Notes under the pieces: generated by a model
Database searches by the model: none
Told to the model about the DNA's origin: nothing
What the model saw: only the letters and a program-made list of their open reading frames with translations
Part shown: positions 19,795 through 25,206 of the stretch, one piece after another
How the letters are laid out: every line of letters begins with the position of its first letter
Numbering within the stretch: the first letter of the stretch is position 1
Made by a program: the position numbers and the translations under genes
Origin: a virus
DNA length: 41,298 nucleotides
Virus record (IMG/VR): IMGVR_UViG_3300030329_002402
Coordinates: 1-41,298 of that record
Strand: one strand, 5' to 3'

Positions 19795-20161
19795 GCATCA
19801 GGAAGAGGCGAGTTTTCAGGCTAAGATCAAAAAAACAGCCATTCGCAATTACCTATTCAGCTACTCTGGGCATGATAATCCACTCACATCGTCGAAATTA
19901 CAGTCGATCTTTCATGTGGGTGATGTGGTAGTTCGGCAGGCGATTGGCCTGTTGCGGGATGACGGCGAACCGATCGGGAGTTGCTCAAAGGGCTTTTTTT
20001 ATGCTAAAACGCCAGATCAGCTTGAAGGCACACTAAATGACTTCAGAAGCAGGATCGGGGCATTATCAATGCGTTTACGGGCTTTAGAGGGTACTTATGA
20101 CAGAATGGATGGTAACAAACCCCAGCAGGCCCTATTTAAAGATATGGAGGTGGTTAAATGA
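19787..20161 (+). CDS. Winged-helix DNA-binding protein
   Basis: The 124-residue protein starts at a GTG. It contains PLTSSKLQSIFHVGDVVVRQ (about 32-51) and then IGLLRDDGEPIGSCSKGFFY, a helix-turn-helix followed by a wing. A coiled segment follows (FRSRIGALSMRLRALEGTYD). This architecture recurs in phage early operons near recombination genes and probably regulates them. It overlaps the next gene (ATGA). Confidence 0.7.
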   Translation: MNKHQEEASFQAKIKKTAIRNYLFSYSGHDNPLTSSKLQSIFHVGDVVVRQAIGLLRDDGEPIGSCSKGFFYAKTPDQLEGTLNDFRSRIGALSMRLRALEGTYDRMDGNKPQQALFKDMEVVK

Positions 20162-20712
20162 GCGAAAAATATATACCTAATGACCTTGATGAATTTTATT
20201 ATAACGTAGCTGACGATGATGTTAATTCAATGGAGAACAGCCACATTGATCCTAAGAAGGCGGATGCTTTGCTGTACTGCATCACGAAAGAGAGAGAAAA
20301 GATCAATAAAATAAATCAAGAGGCATCAGATCAGATCGTAGCGATCGGCGAATGGCGTGACTCGATAGTCGCGAAGCACGAAAAGTCGATCGATCACATG
20401 ACTGCTGGCCTACAGGAGTTTTTTAGCAGGCTGGTGGCTAACGATCCAAAATTAAAAACAAAATCATTTCCGAATGGAGTGATGAAATTACGGAAGCAAC
20501 AACCTCTATTGATTATAGAGGATGAAAATAAGTTTTTCAGCAATTTAAAGAACAGGGCAAATTTTACGATACATACCGAGAAGGTAAAACCTGACAAAAA
20601 AAAGATAATGGCGCATATTAAATCTACCGGCGAGATACCACCTGGTTGCAGAATATCAATACGAAATGATAAATTTTCAATAAATACAAATGAGGGACGA
20701 AATGACAAATAA
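20158..20712 (+). CDS. Mu Gam-like nuclease-inhibitor family protein
   Basis: The 184-residue protein has a long N-terminal coiled coil (about 40-75, REKINKINQEASDQIVAIGE). A compact domain follows with TKSFPNGVMKLRKQQP (about 101-116), VKPDKKKIMAHIKSTGEIPP and GCRISIRNDKFSI. This order matches Gam-type host-nuclease inhibitors, which coat double-stranded DNA ends, and the related siphovirus Gp157 family. I cannot separate the two by eye. It is adjacent to a Rad52-like annealase, as expected for a phage recombination module. Confidence 0.65.
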   Translation: MSEKYIPNDLDEFYYNVADDDVNSMENSHIDPKKADALLYCITKEREKINKINQEASDQIVAIGEWRDSIVAKHEKSIDHMTAGLQEFFSRLVANDPKLKTKSFPNGVMKLRKQQPLLIIEDENKFFSNLKNRANFTIHTEKVKPDKKKIMAHIKSTGEIPPGCRISIRNDKFSINTNEGRNDK

Positions 20713-21670
20713 TGAAGGTTTTAATTTAGAAATACAGAATGCACTGCGCGAACCGACACCCCACGAACGGGTGAACTTTCGCGTGGGCTTTAAAAATCAG
20801 GAGAAGGGTTACGCCATTATGCTGGCCTATATCGATGCTCGTTATGTACAGGATCGGCTCGATGAAATTGTAGGAGCATCTAATTGGGAAGTAGAATACA
20901 TCGAAGTCGCCGGCAATATGTTCTGCGCTATTACGATACGCTGGCCAGAGGGACAAGTGACCCGTAAAATGGATGTCGGTATAGAAACTGATGTCGAGAA
21001 GGAAAAAGGTCAGGCATCCGATGCGTTTAAACGCTCTGCTGTTATGTATGGAATCGGCCGTGACCTATATGGATATCCAAAACACTATGCAGACTTGGAT
21101 TCGGGGGGGAAAGTCCCCTACGATTGGAAACCTGCGGGCTGGGGTGACACACCATCAAATGGTCGCGATAGTGTCATGTCTGGCGACCAGATAAATAACA
21201 CAACTAACCCCAGCCCCCCTCCTAAAACGTCGATGAAGCAGGCCGATGTGGCTCAGAAACCGGATGAGGAAGAGACTTTAAAGGAGATGGCAGATAGAGT
21301 CACCCGGAAAGCCGCCGAGACTGCGCCGGATAAATTCCCTGAAGGTTACGATGATAAGGGCTTAAAAACAGGGACGCCGCCAGAGCAACAGTTCGTTCTG
21401 GTGAAAAACCTAAAGGCTAAAATGACTTCGCAAAAAGGGGCGGTTCTATACATTCCCCCTGAATATAGTGGTGATATGGATGATCGCGCCGCTACGAAAA
21501 AATATTGGGTTGGGGCAGGAGAAATTCAAAATGAGGACGCCAATATGAACGGACTATTTAATGTGACGATTAAACGGTGGAAGGCTGAACAGAATGGTTA
21601 TGTGTATGAGGAACTTTCTGAACAAGCAGATGAACCTGTAACTCTTAGTGATGACGATCTGCCCTTTTAG
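20702..21670 (+). CDS. Rad52-like single-strand annealing protein with SSB-like tail
   Basis: The 322-residue protein has a Rad52/Rad22-type domain at about 18-135. Visible segments are RVGFKNQEKGYAIMLAYIDA, RLDEIVGASNWEVEY and QASDAFKRSAVMYGIGRDLY. It anneals complementary DNA strands during recombination and replication. A long polar linker follows, then about 85 residues that could form a small beta domain. The C-terminus, SDDDLPF, resembles the DDDIPF tip of bacterial SSB, which recruits partner proteins. The ATG at 20702 has GAGGGACG upstream, so it is preferred over 20690. It overlaps the Gam-like gene by 11 nt. Confidence 0.8.
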   Translation: MTNNEGFNLEIQNALREPTPHERVNFRVGFKNQEKGYAIMLAYIDARYVQDRLDEIVGASNWEVEYIEVAGNMFCAITIRWPEGQVTRKMDVGIETDVEKEKGQASDAFKRSAVMYGIGRDLYGYPKHYADLDSGGKVPYDWKPAGWGDTPSNGRDSVMSGDQINNTTNPSPPPKTSMKQADVAQKPDEEETLKEMADRVTRKAAETAPDKFPEGYDDKGLKTGTPPEQQFVLVKNLKAKMTSQKGAVLYIPPEYSGDMDDRAATKKYWVGAGEIQNEDANMNGLFNVTIKRWKAEQNGYVYEELSEQADEPVTLSDDDLPF

Positions 21671-21672
21671 GT

Positions 21673-21954
21673 GTGAAACAGGCCAAGTTTATTGTCATCC
21701 CGGCCACGGTCAGGGCCGATAGAAGTCTGCCTGATGGTGCTAAGATACTTTATGGAGACATTAAAGCTCTATCAAATAAACACGGCTACTGTTTTGCCTC
21801 CAACGGGCATTTTGCCAAATTGTTTGGAAAAACTAACATAACAATATCAAACTGGATTTCTAAGCTGAAAAAAGCTGGATATATTTCGATAAGTTACAAC
21901 CCGCACCGGAGGATTTTCATTGCGAAAAAACAAAAAAATAGCCCATCGGATTGA
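21673..21954 (+). CDS. Helix-turn-helix protein, HTH_36 type
   Basis: The 93-residue protein starts at a GTG and includes DRSLPDGAKILYGDIKALSN, then FAKLFGKTNITISNWISKLK. This matches the HTH_36 domain found in replication initiators and regulators of mobile elements. The usual C-terminal domain of replication proteins is absent. It may act as a small regulator or a truncated replication protein. It overlaps the next gene by 35 nt. Confidence 0.65.
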   Translation: MKQAKFIVIPATVRADRSLPDGAKILYGDIKALSNKHGYCFASNGHFAKLFGKTNITISNWISKLKKAGYISISYNPHRRIFIAKKQKNSPSD

Positions 21955-22111
21955 TGACCATAATGGCGTCATTCAGCAGTATCCTAAAAAGATGCGCCAT
22001 CCCCACAGGCATGGATTCGTGTGGGATGACGACGCTACAGACAAACAATTCCCATTGCGCTGGTATACTAATTTACCTGCAATCGTTAAACTGGTATATA
22101 TCGATGAATAA
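21920..22111 (+). CDS. Small hypothetical protein with TTG start (63 aa)
   Basis: The frame starts at TTG 21920, preceded at 7 nt by a strong GGAGG that lies inside the end of the HTH gene. No ATG or GTG is available in the first 24 codons. It encodes a basic, His-rich protein (HRIDDHNGVIQQYPKK, MRHPHRHGFVWDDDAT) of unknown function. It overlaps the methyltransferase start by 8 nt, which suggests translational coupling. Confidence 0.55.
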   Translation: MRKNKKIAHRIDDHNGVIQQYPKKMRHPHRHGFVWDDDATDKQFPLRWYTNLPAIVKLVYIDE

Positions 22112-23015
22112 AATACTCCAGGGGCATGTATTAGATCGGCTTAAAGACTTAAATAATGAGTCAGTCCAGTGCGTTGTAACTTCGCCTCCGTACTGGAACC
22201 TCCGAGATTATCAAAAGGATCATCAACTCGGACTTGAACTAACACCAGAAGAATATGTAGAGAACATGGTCAAGGTATTTCGTGAAGTAAAAAGAGTATT
22301 AAAAGACGATGGGACGGTGTGGCTGAATTTGGGGGACACTTATAATAGTGGCAGAGACGGAGGTCATGCTGGAGGCTCAAAACAAAATCACCCCAAGTAT
22401 CTCCAGAGAAGCGGAGCAAATGTTAGTGGTCTAAAACCCAAAGACCTTGTTGGTATTCCGTGGCGAGTTGCTTTCGCATTACAGGCTGATGGATGGCATT
22501 TAAGACAAGATATTATATGGCATAAGCCTAACCCTATGCCAGAGAGTGTTCAGGATAGATGCACTAAATCACACGAGTATATATTCTTATTAACGAAGTC
22601 GGCCAAGTATTTCTATGATAATAATGCTATCAGTGAACCCTGTGATTATCCAAATGAAGGCAAATGGGGAGGAGATAATAAAGGATACGATGGCAACCAT
22701 ACAATGAAGGCACGGAATTTATTGGCTTATCGAAATGGTGAAAAAAGAAACAAACGATCTGTATGGGCTATTAACACAAAGCCCTATAAGGACGCTCATT
22801 TTGCTGTATTCCCACCCAAATTACCCGAGTTGTGCATTAAGGCTGGTAGTAGTGAAGGTGACACCGTTTTAGATCCGTTTTTCGGTAGCGGCACAACAGG
22901 CTGGGTGGCCCAAAGATTAGGCCGTAAATGGATAGGGATCGAACTCAATCCAGAATACATAAAAATAGCAGAAAAGAGGTTTGATCAGTATGAATTATTT
23001 TCGGCAAATAAATGA
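22104..23015 (+). CDS. Beta-class DNA amino-methyltransferase (N4-cytosine or N6-adenine)
   Basis: The 303-residue protein carries the catalytic motif TSPPYWNLRDY near residue 25 and the S-adenosylmethionine-binding motif LDPFFGSGTTGWVAQRLGRK near 255-275. Catalytic motif before cofactor motif is the beta-class order. TSPPY is found in both N4-cytosine and N6-adenine enzymes, so base specificity is open. The start is set at MNKILQGHV (22104), because the frame upstream is an unsupported extension over two other genes. No restriction partner is adjacent, so it is a solitary phage enzyme that probably protects its DNA. It overlaps the C5 enzyme gene by ATGA. Confidence 0.88.
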   Translation: MNKILQGHVLDRLKDLNNESVQCVVTSPPYWNLRDYQKDHQLGLELTPEEYVENMVKVFREVKRVLKDDGTVWLNLGDTYNSGRDGGHAGGSKQNHPKYLQRSGANVSGLKPKDLVGIPWRVAFALQADGWHLRQDIIWHKPNPMPESVQDRCTKSHEYIFLLTKSAKYFYDNNAISEPCDYPNEGKWGGDNKGYDGNHTMKARNLLAYRNGEKRNKRSVWAINTKPYKDAHFAVFPPKLPELCIKAGSSEGDTVLDPFFGSGTTGWVAQRLGRKWIGIELNPEYIKIAEKRFDQYELFSANK

Positions 23016-24142
23016 AGATGCTCGATCTATTTTCAGGCATCGGCGGATTCTCACTGGCGGCCAGTTGGGTCTGGGGCGATGATCTTGAGATTGCGGGATT
23101 CTGCGAGATTGATGAATACTGCGAAAAAGTGCTTAATAAGAATTTCCCTGGAGTGCCAGTATATAAAGATATTACACAATTAGATGGAAAACAGTTTAAA
23201 AACATTGATCTTATTACCGGCGGGTTTCCGTGCCAGGATATTTCGGTAGCGGGAAAAGGGAAAGGATTATTTAATGAAGAAACTGGAGAAAAAACACGAT
23301 CCGGTCTTTGGGTTGAAATGCTTAGAATCATTAGCGAAGTACGACCCAGATACGCACTTATTGAAAACGTTCCAATGCTCACTGTTCGAGGAGGAACCAG
23401 AGTCATTGCTGACCTTACCGAAATCGGGTATGACGCATCGTGGGATATTATATCGGCTCAAGACCGGGGAGCATTGCATAAAAGAGCCAGAATCTGGATT
23501 GTTGCCTACCCCGACCTCGGGGATATACAAACAGGACGTAATGGATTCCGGGGAGTATGCTCGAAAGATAGAGAAAAAAGGACATCAAATAATGTTACCA
23601 GCCGCAGTAAAGTTAAAGCAAACTTTTCCTACCCCAAGAGCTCAAATGACAAGACCGGTGAAAATAAGAGAAGGTGGGCATCGTTCCAATCTGGAAGAGG
23701 TGGTCGCAGAGAGAATGTTTCCGACTCCACAAGCATCGGATTATCAAGAAAAACCGACAAGCAAATCGTGGAAGGCGAAGGGAGGGGTGAATTACTGTCT
23801 GTCAAACCCGGAAATTCAAGAACAATGGAAGAAATTTCCAACTCCAACAGGAAGCGATCACAAAGGATGGAGTCGCAATCACAAAAGAGCCAACGATCCG
23901 ACAAACAGACTGGACTTCAGGGTGGAACCGGAAACGGGGGTTGGTGGGACGTTGAACCCCGAATGGGTTTGTTGGCTGATGGGGTATCCACCGAATTGGC
24001 TGGATGTTGGGATCGAGAACCAGACATCCCCAGAGTCACAACAGGTATCAAAGACAGAATCCATAAATTGCGAGGACTCGGAAACGCCATAGTGCCTCAG
24101 GTGGCTTATTATATTATGAAAAAGTTACATACTGAAATTTAG
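23012..24142 (+). CDS. dcm-like: C5-cytosine DNA methyltransferase, with a dual-coded target-recognition region
   Basis: The 376 residues show motif I LDLFSGIGGFSLA (4-16), motif IV GGFPCQD with catalytic Cys74, motif VI ENV (118-120), motif VIII HKRARIW (156-162) and motif IX/X RIHKLRGLGNAIVPQ (349-363). The enzyme methylates cytosine in DNA. The region between motifs VIII and IX, where the target recognition domain lies, is low in complexity (rich in S, R, K, N, Q, G). It has four spaced repeats: VAYPD (164), FSYPK (205), VSDST (236) and ISNSN (275). This stretch is also an open frame in the +1 frame. The first codon overlaps the previous stop. Confidence 0.9.
   Translation: MKMLDLFSGIGGFSLAASWVWGDDLEIAGFCEIDEYCEKVLNKNFPGVPVYKDITQLDGKQFKNIDLITGGFPCQDISVAGKGKGLFNEETGEKTRSGLWVEMLRIISEVRPRYALIENVPMLTVRGGTRVIADLTEIGYDASWDIISAQDRGALHKRARIWIVAYPDLGDIQTGRNGFRGVCSKDREKRTSNNVTSRSKVKANFSYPKSSNDKTGENKRRWASFQSGRGGRRENVSDSTSIGLSRKTDKQIVEGEGRGELLSVKPGNSRTMEEISNSNRKRSQRMESQSQKSQRSDKQTGLQGGTGNGGWWDVEPRMGLLADGVSTELAGCWDREPDIPRVTTGIKDRIHKLRGLGNAIVPQVAYYIMKKLHTEI
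23274..24092 (+). CDS. Nested gene in the +1 frame of the C5 methyltransferase
   Basis: An open frame of 272 codons lies wholly inside the methyltransferase gene. It contains ESLAKYDPDT, KTFQCSLFEEEPESL, LPKSGMTHRGILYRL (about 48-62), four PTP motifs (78-80, 119-121, 150-152, 189-191), and near the end GGTLNPEWVCWLMGYPPNWL (224-243). I know these motifs from stand-alone phage and bacterial proteins found with C5 methyltransferases, so this is unlikely to be a chance frame. AAAGGA lies about 8 nt before its ATG. Function is unknown. It may be a partner or specificity subunit, which is a guess. Confidence 0.72.
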   Translation: MKKLEKKHDPVFGLKCLESLAKYDPDTHLLKTFQCSLFEEEPESLLTLPKSGMTHRGILYRLKTGEHCIKEPESGLLPTPTSGIYKQDVMDSGEYARKIEKKGHQIMLPAAVKLKQTFPTPRAQMTRPVKIREGGHRSNLEEVVAERMFPTPQASDYQEKPTSKSWKAKGGVNYCLSNPEIQEQWKKFPTPTGSDHKGWSRNHKRANDPTNRLDFRVEPETGVGGTLNPEWVCWLMGYPPNWLDVGIENQTSPESQQVSKTESINCEDSETP

Positions 24143-24475: not shown

Positions 24476-24796
24476 ATGAAGAAAGAATTAGCAATAAAAC
24501 TAAAAGAAAAAGCTGAAGACATAGCAAAGAAATTCAGCATATCAGAACGTGATTTCAACTTTTCTAATGAAACGTTTAGTGTTAGCTCTATCACACCACT
24601 AAGTGAAACAACTGCGAGTGTAGAGTTTAAGAAATCCTCAGGTAAGTATGGCGTTGCCTTTTGTTACTGGATTAATATGGGCGGTGGTCAGTGGCGATAC
24701 TTCTTCCCAACGTACGATCATTGTATTGGAGCAGAGAAACTTAGAGAAGTACTCCATGATGTAGAGAGGAGAAACTTCCCATTGAATTTTAAATGA
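24476..24796 (+). CDS. Hypothetical protein paired with the endonuclease gene
   Basis: The 106-residue protein begins MKKELAIKLKEKAEDIAKKF and has an alpha-beta plan with a GKYGVAFCYWINMGGGQW core. The family is unknown to me. It overlaps the endonuclease gene by ATGA, so they are translated together. An AAGGG site lies 10 nt before the ATG. Its AT-rich composition resembles the right part of the window and differs from the genes just upstream. Confidence 0.5.
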   Translation: MKKELAIKLKEKAEDIAKKFSISERDFNFSNETFSVSSITPLSETTASVEFKKSSGKYGVAFCYWINMGGGQWRYFFPTYDHCIGAEKLREVLHDVERRNFPLNFK

Positions 24797-25206
24797 TTGA
24801 TACCACTACTAAGGGTGGTATAGGTGAACTCGTAGTAGCTATAGATTTATTAAAGAAAGGATGGACGGTATTCTTTCCGATAGTAGATAACACAGGCTGT
24901 GATTTAATTGCGATGAAAGATAACGTAATTAAAACAATACAGGTTAAGTTTCATACCAAACCAAGCTCAGGTTCATCAGGTTCTATTAGTATAGATATGA
25001 GAAAGCGTACAGGCAGGAAGAATATTATCTCATGTAAGTGTAACGTAGTTGCTGTTCCATTGCAGAAGAAAGAATTGGGGATAGATACTGTAGTTTATAT
25101 ACCATACAACGGAGAGATAACGTTGTCCATTGCATTTAAGGACGCTAAGAATAACCAGACTTCAAAGCGTAGGTGGTATAAAGATTTCCTTGATGTGCCT
25201 ATTTAA
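24793..25206 (+). CDS. PD-(D/E)XK endonuclease family protein
   Basis: The 137-residue protein has KGGIGELVVAIDLLKKGW (7-24) with Glu12. It continues TGCDLIA with Asp37, and IQVKFH with Gln50 and Lys52. This E-D-QxK arrangement matches the PD-(D/E)XK fold as seen in the family of the intron endonuclease I-Ssp6803I and in related phage nucleases. No intron or split gene is visible around it, so it may be a free-standing homing or exclusion nuclease. It ends 2 nt before the stop of the convergent giant gene. Confidence 0.7.
   Translation: MIDTTTKGGIGELVVAIDLLKKGWTVFFPIVDNTGCDLIAMKDNVIKTIQVKFHTKPSSGSSGSISIDMRKRTGRKNIISCKCNVVAVPLQKKELGIDTVVYIPYNGEITLSIAFKDAKNNQTSKRRWYKDFLDVPI

What the first reader, a model, noticed from the sequence alone, without database searches (positions are those of the whole stretch)
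23274..24092. A conserved-looking gene nested in another frame inside the C5 methyltransferase
Seen: a 272-codon open frame in the +1 frame lies entirely within the methyltransferase gene. It carries motifs (SLAKYDPDT, KTFQCSLF, LPKSGM, four PTP motifs, LNPEWVCWLMGYPPNW) that I know from stand-alone proteins found with phage C5 methyltransferases. Seen: the four PTP motifs at about 23505, 23628, 23721 and 23838 coincide with four repeats in the methyltransferase frame (VAYPD, FSYPK, VSDST, ISNSN). The same 15-base units are thus repeated and meaningful in both frames. Inferred: the target-recognition region is overprinted, and the nested product may be a specificity partner or a second protein acting with the enzyme. 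A short frameshift could also swap one recognition region for the other. I know of no description of this arrangement but cannot exclude one.
Basis: partly seen in the sequence, partly recalled or inferred. Interest (0 to 1): 0.85.

Follow-up and report, generated by a model that had tools for sequence, protein, structure and literature searches.

The report
DNA-methylating enzyme hidden in two frames
The second reading frame inside this phage DNA methyltransferase gene is almost certainly a real gene that supplies the enzyme's missing DNA-recognition part, so one stretch of DNA encodes both halves of one enzyme, as it does in every sampled relative with the nested arrangement.

Summary
The 376-aa C5 methyltransferase ORF (alpha, 23012-24142) wholly contains a 272-codon +1-frame ORF (beta, 23274-24092) with its own ribosome-binding site. 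In 188 non-redundant related loci from phages, bacteria and archaea the +1 ORF is always there, about twice as long as synonymous codon shuffling predicts. Classical C5 methyltransferases in the same host genomes show nothing of the kind. Alpha holds motifs I-VIII and X but lacks motif IX. Its variable region is predicted disordered and its 'synonymous' sites there are frozen, while beta's are free. Beta carries PTP repeats and motif IX. In actinophages the same PTP+IX block occurs in frame in single-chain enzymes, or as an adjacent gene. So beta most likely is the target-recognition/motif-IX subunit of a two-polypeptide C5 methyltransferase, working like M.EcoHK31I and M.AquI. Near-identical alpha cores carry unrelated beta blocks, as expected if specificity cassettes are exchanged. 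A frameshift 'switch' is not supported. The two-polypeptide principle is known. New here are the breadth, the location of the recognition block in the overlapping frame, and the annotation gap: RefSeq lists only alpha at the E. coli locus checked. Activity and expression are untested.

The parts
23012..24142 (+). alpha: C5 cytosine methyltransferase catalytic subunit, 376 aa, motifs I-VIII and X, no motif IX
   Evidence: PF00145 7.6e-44; aligns to M.HhaI 13-176 and only weakly 299-318; matches classical C5 profile columns 1-165 and 319-343
23274..24092 (+). beta: nested +1-frame gene, 272 aa, PTP repeats (recognition block) and motif IX
   Evidence: phrog_1008 7.8e-26; +1 ORF conserved in 188/188 non-redundant loci; in-frame homologue in single-chain MTases
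23261..23266 (+). Shine-Dalgarno-like AAAGGA, 7 nt upstream of the beta ATG
   Evidence: sequence; SD flag
23021..23047 (+). alpha motif I (LDLFSGIGG)
   Evidence: alignment; AF2 pLDDT >95
23219..23245 (+). alpha motif IV, catalytic Cys (GGFPCQDIS)
   Evidence: near-invariant (G71, P73, C74, S78 invariant)
23363..23371 (+). alpha motif VI (ENV)
   Evidence: invariant E118/N119
23477..23506 (+). alpha motif VIII (HKRARIWIVA)
   Evidence: invariant H156/R158/R160
23534..24037 (+). alpha residues 175-342: predicted disordered; out-of-frame readout of the beta recognition block
   Evidence: AF2 pLDDT <50; in family pairs alpha 4-fold sites differ at only 0.072 in this region against 0.505 outside the overlap
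24068..24100 (+). alpha motif X (LRGLGNAIVPQ)
   Evidence: AF2 helix pLDDT about 94; hhalign columns 319-343
23505..23513 (+). beta PTP motif 1
23628..23636 (+). beta PTP motif 2
23721..23729 (+). beta PTP motif 3
23838..23846 (+). beta PTP motif 4
23952..23999 (+). beta motif IX (LNPEWVCWLMGYPPNW)
   Evidence: best local match to the classical C5 profile is at motif IX, columns 301-309; V232, M236, G237, P239 invariant in 93 homologues
21951..23015 (+). upstream N4/N6-type DNA methyltransferase; stop codon overlaps alpha ATG (ATGA), likely translational coupling
   Evidence: PF01555 3.1e-59

Best explanation
The locus encodes a two-polypeptide C5 cytosine methyltransferase in overlapping frames. 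Alpha (frame 0) has the SAM-binding and catalytic core (motifs I-VIII) and the motif X helix. Beta (frame +1, its own start inside alpha) has the PTP-repeat recognition block and motif IX. The two polypeptides are inferred to assemble into one enzyme that methylates cytosine at a site chosen by beta. Between motif VIII and motif X the DNA is selected for beta; alpha only has to stay open there, giving a long flexible linker. Specificity changes by replacement of the beta block under a nearly unchanged alpha core. Shown by computation: real coding in both frames, division of motifs, homology of the beta block to the in-frame block of single-chain enzymes. Inferred: translation, heterodimer formation, methylation activity, and that the PTP block is the target-recognition part.
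For: 255 loci fetched by beta or by alpha all carry alpha with an overlapping +1 beta, including all 80 chosen by alpha alone. In 188 non-redundant loci the +1 ORF averages 275 codons against 124 after codon permutation, and the beta HMM beats all sims in 100%. On 94 loci outside the training set the C-terminal beta HMM beats all 50 sims in 100%, the N-terminal part in 59%. Nineteen classical C5 MTases in the same genomes have no beta and a +1 frame at chance; 11 family members have both. Forty-two independent pairs: alpha 4-fold sites differ at 0.505 outside the overlap, 0.239 over motifs IV-VIII and 0.072 in the TRD region, where beta 4-fold sites differ at 0.369. No IX-like motif in the alpha frame in 188/188, IX in beta in 185/188; motif X usually in alpha, in beta instead in L003, L006 and L073. 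Single-chain McProf gp6 and Shauna1 gp67 carry the PTP+IX block in frame after motif VIII (beta HMM 2.6e-15 and 1.7e-6); Peaches, Bora and Abidatro have it as the next gene. AF2: alpha core >90, residues 175-342 mostly <50. Alpha cores 92-95% identical carry beta blocks 22-45% identical.
Against: No expression or activity data. Beta alone folds with low confidence (pLDDT 59). The profile match of beta motif IX to classical motif IX is short and weak on its own (9 columns, E = 0.05). Beta has no sequence match to any solved structure. The window has no close relative, so the codon-position test could not be run on the window itself; only its protein-level counterpart could (nearest relative L020: 40% beta-frame vs 24% alpha-frame identity in the region).
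Confidence: 0.9

Rival explanations
1. The +1 ORF is a by-product of codon and composition constraints in the methyltransferase gene and makes no functional protein.
For: Part of the beta-like signal over motifs IV-VIII is forced by alpha: codon-permuted genes still score a mean of 37.8 bits with the beta HMM.
Against: Real loci score 143.9 bits on average; +1 ORF length exceeds the null; classical C5 MTases in the same genomes show no such frame; alpha synonymous sites are frozen while beta synonymous sites are free; the block occurs in frame in single-chain enzymes.
Confidence: 0.02
2. Ribosomal frameshifting joins alpha motifs I-VIII to the beta block, making a fused enzyme, possibly alongside separate subunits.
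For: Actinophages encode exactly such a chain in one frame; beta is always in the same +1 phase.
Against: A +1 step is needed; the window has a good SD and ATG for beta; in 46 of 188 loci the beta ORF has an ATG exactly 4 nt after alpha's start, as in NTGAATG; a fusion would usually lose motif X, which lies in the alpha frame.
Confidence: 0.05
3. Beta is a separate protein with an unrelated role (regulator, anti-restriction factor) that happens to overlap alpha.
For: Beta has an N-terminal part (about 75-130 aa) that single-chain enzymes lack (beta HMM match there starts at position 100).
Against: Alpha lacks motif IX in every locus and beta has it; motif X appears in one or the other frame; the PTP+IX block is fused to motifs I-VIII and X in actinophages.
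Confidence: 0.03
4. Alpha carries its own recognition domain (as predicted for M.EcoHK31I) and beta contributes only motif IX.
For: PMC3404938 places the predicted TRD of M.EcoHK31I in the large subunit.
Against: Alpha residues 175-342 are predicted disordered and in family pairs that region is constrained in the beta frame, not the alpha frame; single-chain homologues have the beta-frame block there.
Confidence: 0.05

Closest known systems
M.EcoHK31I (two-polypeptide C5 MTase, YGGCCR; Lee et al. 1995 as cited in PMC3404938)
   Same: Large subunit with motifs I-VIII and X, small subunit with motif IX; two proteins are required there for methylation in vitro (title of the cited paper). From memory, unverified here: the small ORF lies inside the large one in another frame.
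   Different: There the predicted TRD is put in the large subunit; here the recognition block is in beta and alpha's region is disordered linker.
M.AquI (split C5 MTase)
   Same: Catalytic core and motif IX on different polypeptides.
   Different: M.AquI's small subunit also holds motif X; in the window X stays in alpha. Peaches, Bora, Abidatro and phiBT1 relatives are M.AquI-like in this respect.
Single-chain actinophage C5 MTases (McProf gp6, Shauna1 gp67)
   Same: Same catalytic core family and same PTP+IX block.
   Different: One frame, one chain; beta's overprinted N-terminal part is absent.
PHROG 1008 / PHROG 363
   Same: Beta belongs to 1008 (7.8e-26), alpha to 363 (1.8e-72); both are just called 'DNA methyltransferase'.
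   Different: Nothing in the library entries as returned relates the two as overlapping products of one locus.
ShiLan out-of-frame HNH in mycobacteriophage methylases (PMC11855218)
   Same: Out-of-frame gene inside a phage methylase gene.
   Different: A mobile HNH insertion, not a subunit of the enzyme.

Membership tests
C5 cytosine DNA methyltransferase (PF00145 / dcm) | motifs I, IV (PCQ), VI (ENV), VIII in the catalytic chain | tested here: met
C5 cytosine DNA methyltransferase (PF00145 / dcm) | motif X | tested here: met
   alpha C-terminus
C5 cytosine DNA methyltransferase (PF00145 / dcm) | TRD and motif IX in the same chain (single-chain enzymes) | tested here: not met
   no IX-like motif in alpha in 188/188; alpha 175-342 disordered
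M.EcoHK31I-type two-polypeptide C5 MTase | motifs I-VIII and X on the large chain, IX on the small chain | tested here: met
   definition from PMC3404938
M.EcoHK31I-type two-polypeptide C5 MTase | predicted TRD on the large chain | tested here: not met
   recognition block is in beta
M.EcoHK31I-type two-polypeptide C5 MTase | both polypeptides required for methylation | not testable with these tools
   needs expression of alpha, beta and both
M.EcoHK31I-type two-polypeptide C5 MTase | sequence homology to M.EcoHK31I alpha and beta | not tested
   sequence not held; Lee et al. 1995 not held
M.AquI-type split C5 MTase | motifs IX and X together on the small subunit | tested here: not met
   window: X in the alpha frame; met in the phiBT1, Peaches and Geodirt relatives
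PHROG 1008 | profile match | tested here: met
   7.8e-26
Out-of-frame HNH insertion in methylase (ShiLan type) | HNH domain in the nested frame | tested here: not met
   no HNH in Pfam, PHROGs or NCBIfam scans of beta

The most novel reading that the evidence does not exclude
An old C5 methyltransferase family spread over phages, bacteria and archaea is obligately encoded by two overlapping frames. Its specificity is set by exchangeable DNA cassettes that must be open in both frames but are selected in the beta frame. Beta's N-terminal part arose de novo by overprinting on the catalytic core. The single-chain actinophage enzymes are later re-fusions of the two frames rather than the ancestral form (rooted tree; quick search, several branches weak).
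Probability: 0.5. Interest if true: 0.85.

Novelty: new variant of a known kind. Interest (0 to 1): 0.72.

Why it matters
Predicting or cloning such enzymes from alpha alone would give a dead or mis-specified enzyme. It is also a rare long same-strand gene overlap in prokaryotes with strong frame-resolved selection, two halves of one enzyme sharing DNA, and single-frame relatives to compare with, so it offers a testable case of how overlapping genes form, persist and come apart.

Tried and rejected
By-product of codon bias: rejected. Frameshift swap of recognition regions: not supported (own start sites, +1 phase). PDB sequence search with the beta profile gave only chance hits (glycolipid transfer protein, E about 1). 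AF2 of beta alone was poor, so no fold search was made with it. hhalign of beta against 19 classical MTases gave only the short motif IX match. Finding M.EcoHK31I itself failed: paper not held and no Enterobacteriaceae genome handle available. The plasmid collection holds one weak beta hit. The window's own DNA has no match in E. coli genomes. Literature searches found no paper describing this overlapping family; the library lacks most subscription journals. The regex for motif IX found none in L008, L331, L339 and L344-L346. In L008 the site reads ESMMGFVIGH on inspection; the others were not resolved.

Full report
WHAT IS THERE. The C5 methyltransferase ORF (alpha, 23012-24142, 376 aa; PF00145 7.6e-44) wholly contains a 272-codon ORF (beta, 23274-24092) in the +1 frame. 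Beta starts with ATG, 7 nt after AAAGGA. Alpha starts inside the stop codon of an upstream N4/N6 methyltransferase (ATGA at 23012-23015). Beta matches PHROG 1008 at 7.8e-26 and nothing convincing in Pfam, NCBIfam or PADLOC.

IS IT MORE THAN CHANCE. I permuted synonymous codons within each alpha gene, which keeps the protein and its codon usage. For the window the longest +1 ORF is 280 codons against a mean of 97 (0 of 200 permutations as long). Over 188 loci less than 70% identical, the +1 ORF averages 275 against 124, and the beta HMM score beats every simulated gene in all loci; the +2 frame is at chance. Part of the N-terminal beta signal is forced by alpha's motifs (simulated genes average 37.8 bits). 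With training and test loci kept apart, the C-terminal beta HMM still beats all 50 permutations in 94 of 94 loci, and the N-terminal part in 59%.

HOW GENERAL IT IS. Scans with the beta profile (viral and genomic collections) and with the alpha profile (viral) gave 240 loci, 255 with the phage records and the window; all have alpha with an overlapping +1 beta, including all 80 chosen by alpha alone. As a control I took the C5 methyltransferases of 26 host genomes. Nineteen classical ones have no beta and a +1 frame at chance (p 0.16-0.99), and in at least eight of them a classical motif IX (such as LTPRECARLMGF) was recognised in frame. Eleven family members in the same genomes have beta, p at most 0.02.

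WHICH FRAME IS UNDER SELECTION. In 42 independent pairs of relatives, alpha's 4-fold degenerate sites differ at 0.505 where only alpha is coded, 0.239 over motifs IV-VIII and 0.072 between motif VIII and motif IX. In that last region beta's 4-fold sites differ at 0.369 and the fastest position is beta's third base; after beta ends the pattern returns to alpha. So the DNA between motifs VIII and IX is selected for beta, and alpha is read through. The window has no close relative, but against its nearest one (L020, 71% identical in the alpha core) the beta frame is 40% identical in this region and the alpha frame 24%. Beta has more identical residues in 143 of 154 comparisons.

WHAT BETA IS. Alpha aligns to M.HhaI residues 13-176 (motifs I-VIII), with only a weak trace of motif X. 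Against classical C5 profiles it covers columns 1-165 and 319-343, that is motifs I-VIII and X. No IX-like motif occurs in the alpha frame in 188 of 188 loci. AlphaFold2 gives alpha a confident core and motif X helix, with residues 175-342 disordered. Beta's best local match to the classical profile is at motif IX (columns 301-309; weak alone, E = 0.05). The strong evidence is fusion. Mycobacterium phages McProf (gp6) and Shauna1 (gp67) have single-chain enzymes in which motifs I-VIII are followed in the same frame by the PTP repeats, LNPRFAEWMMGWP-type motif IX and motif X; the beta HMM finds them at 2.6e-15 and 1.7e-6. Peaches, Bora and Abidatro encode the same block as the next gene. Motif X sits in alpha in the window type and in beta in phiBT1, Geodirt and L073. 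The nested protein is therefore best read as the recognition/motif-IX half of one enzyme.

CASSETTE EXCHANGE. Loci whose alpha cores are 92-95% identical can have beta blocks only 22-45% identical, with different lengths and PTP counts; PTP units are spaced about 36 residues. This is what exchange of specificity blocks would look like. That the PTP block contacts the target site is inferred.

EXPRESSION. In 46 of 188 loci the beta ORF has an ATG 4 nt after alpha's start (NTGAATG), so both frames start together; in others, as here, beta starts inside alpha. An E. coli prophage copy (PT62, L347) has GTGAATG, and RefSeq annotates alpha only. A second E. coli copy (PCP07014) is interrupted in both frames close together. 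No ribosome or peptide data exist here.

ORIGIN. In a quick tree of catalytic cores rooted on classical enzymes the family is one clade (98). Nested loci are spread through its deep branches (Bacillota, Candidatus Doudnabacteria, archaeal, planctomycete, proteobacterial, viral), and the single-chain and split actinophage forms lie together inside it (99). This suggests that the overlapping state is older and the single chains are re-fusions, but the tree is a short search with many weak forks.

COMPARISON WITH THE KNOWN. PMC3404938 describes M.AquI (IX and X on the small subunit) and M.EcoHK31I (I-VIII, X and the predicted TRD on the large chain, IX on the small one). The window works like these. 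It meets the motif division of M.EcoHK31I but not the stated TRD location. I recall, but could not verify, that the M.EcoHK31I small ORF also lies inside the large one. I found no paper describing the wider overlapping family, in a library that lacks most subscription journals.

VERDICT. Observation confirmed; interpretation partly supported and refined. Confidence that beta is real and is the motif-IX/recognition subunit: about 0.9. Biochemical proof is outstanding.

Noticed in passing
window 21951-23015: An N4/N6-type DNA methyltransferase (PF01555) directly upstream shares ATGA with alpha's start, so two DNA methyltransferases lie in tandem in this phage.
   Followed up: partly
window 24793-25206: A 137-aa PD-(D/E)XK endonuclease (PDDEXK_5, 4.2e-12; PADLOC homing endonuclease 5.6e-7) lies about 650 bp after the methyltransferase; whether it is a homing or a cognate restriction nuclease is open.
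   Followed up: partly
window 20158-21670: Mu Gam-like protein and a Rad52/22-family recombination protein upstream, a typical phage recombination module.
   Followed up: no
L003 (NC_004664.2, phage phiBT1 gp9.1): The record notes 'DNA methylase may be inactive'; the +1 ORF at L003:2851-3780 carries the missing block, motif IX and X and is not annotated.
   Followed up: yes
L348:2861-2867 (E. coli PCP07014): A prophage copy is marked pseudogene (internal stop); both frames are interrupted within a few bases of each other.
   Followed up: no
L024, L026, L047, L061, L071, L083, L087: Alpha cores 91-95% identical with largely different beta blocks of different length: a natural set for specificity-swap tests.
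   Followed up: partly
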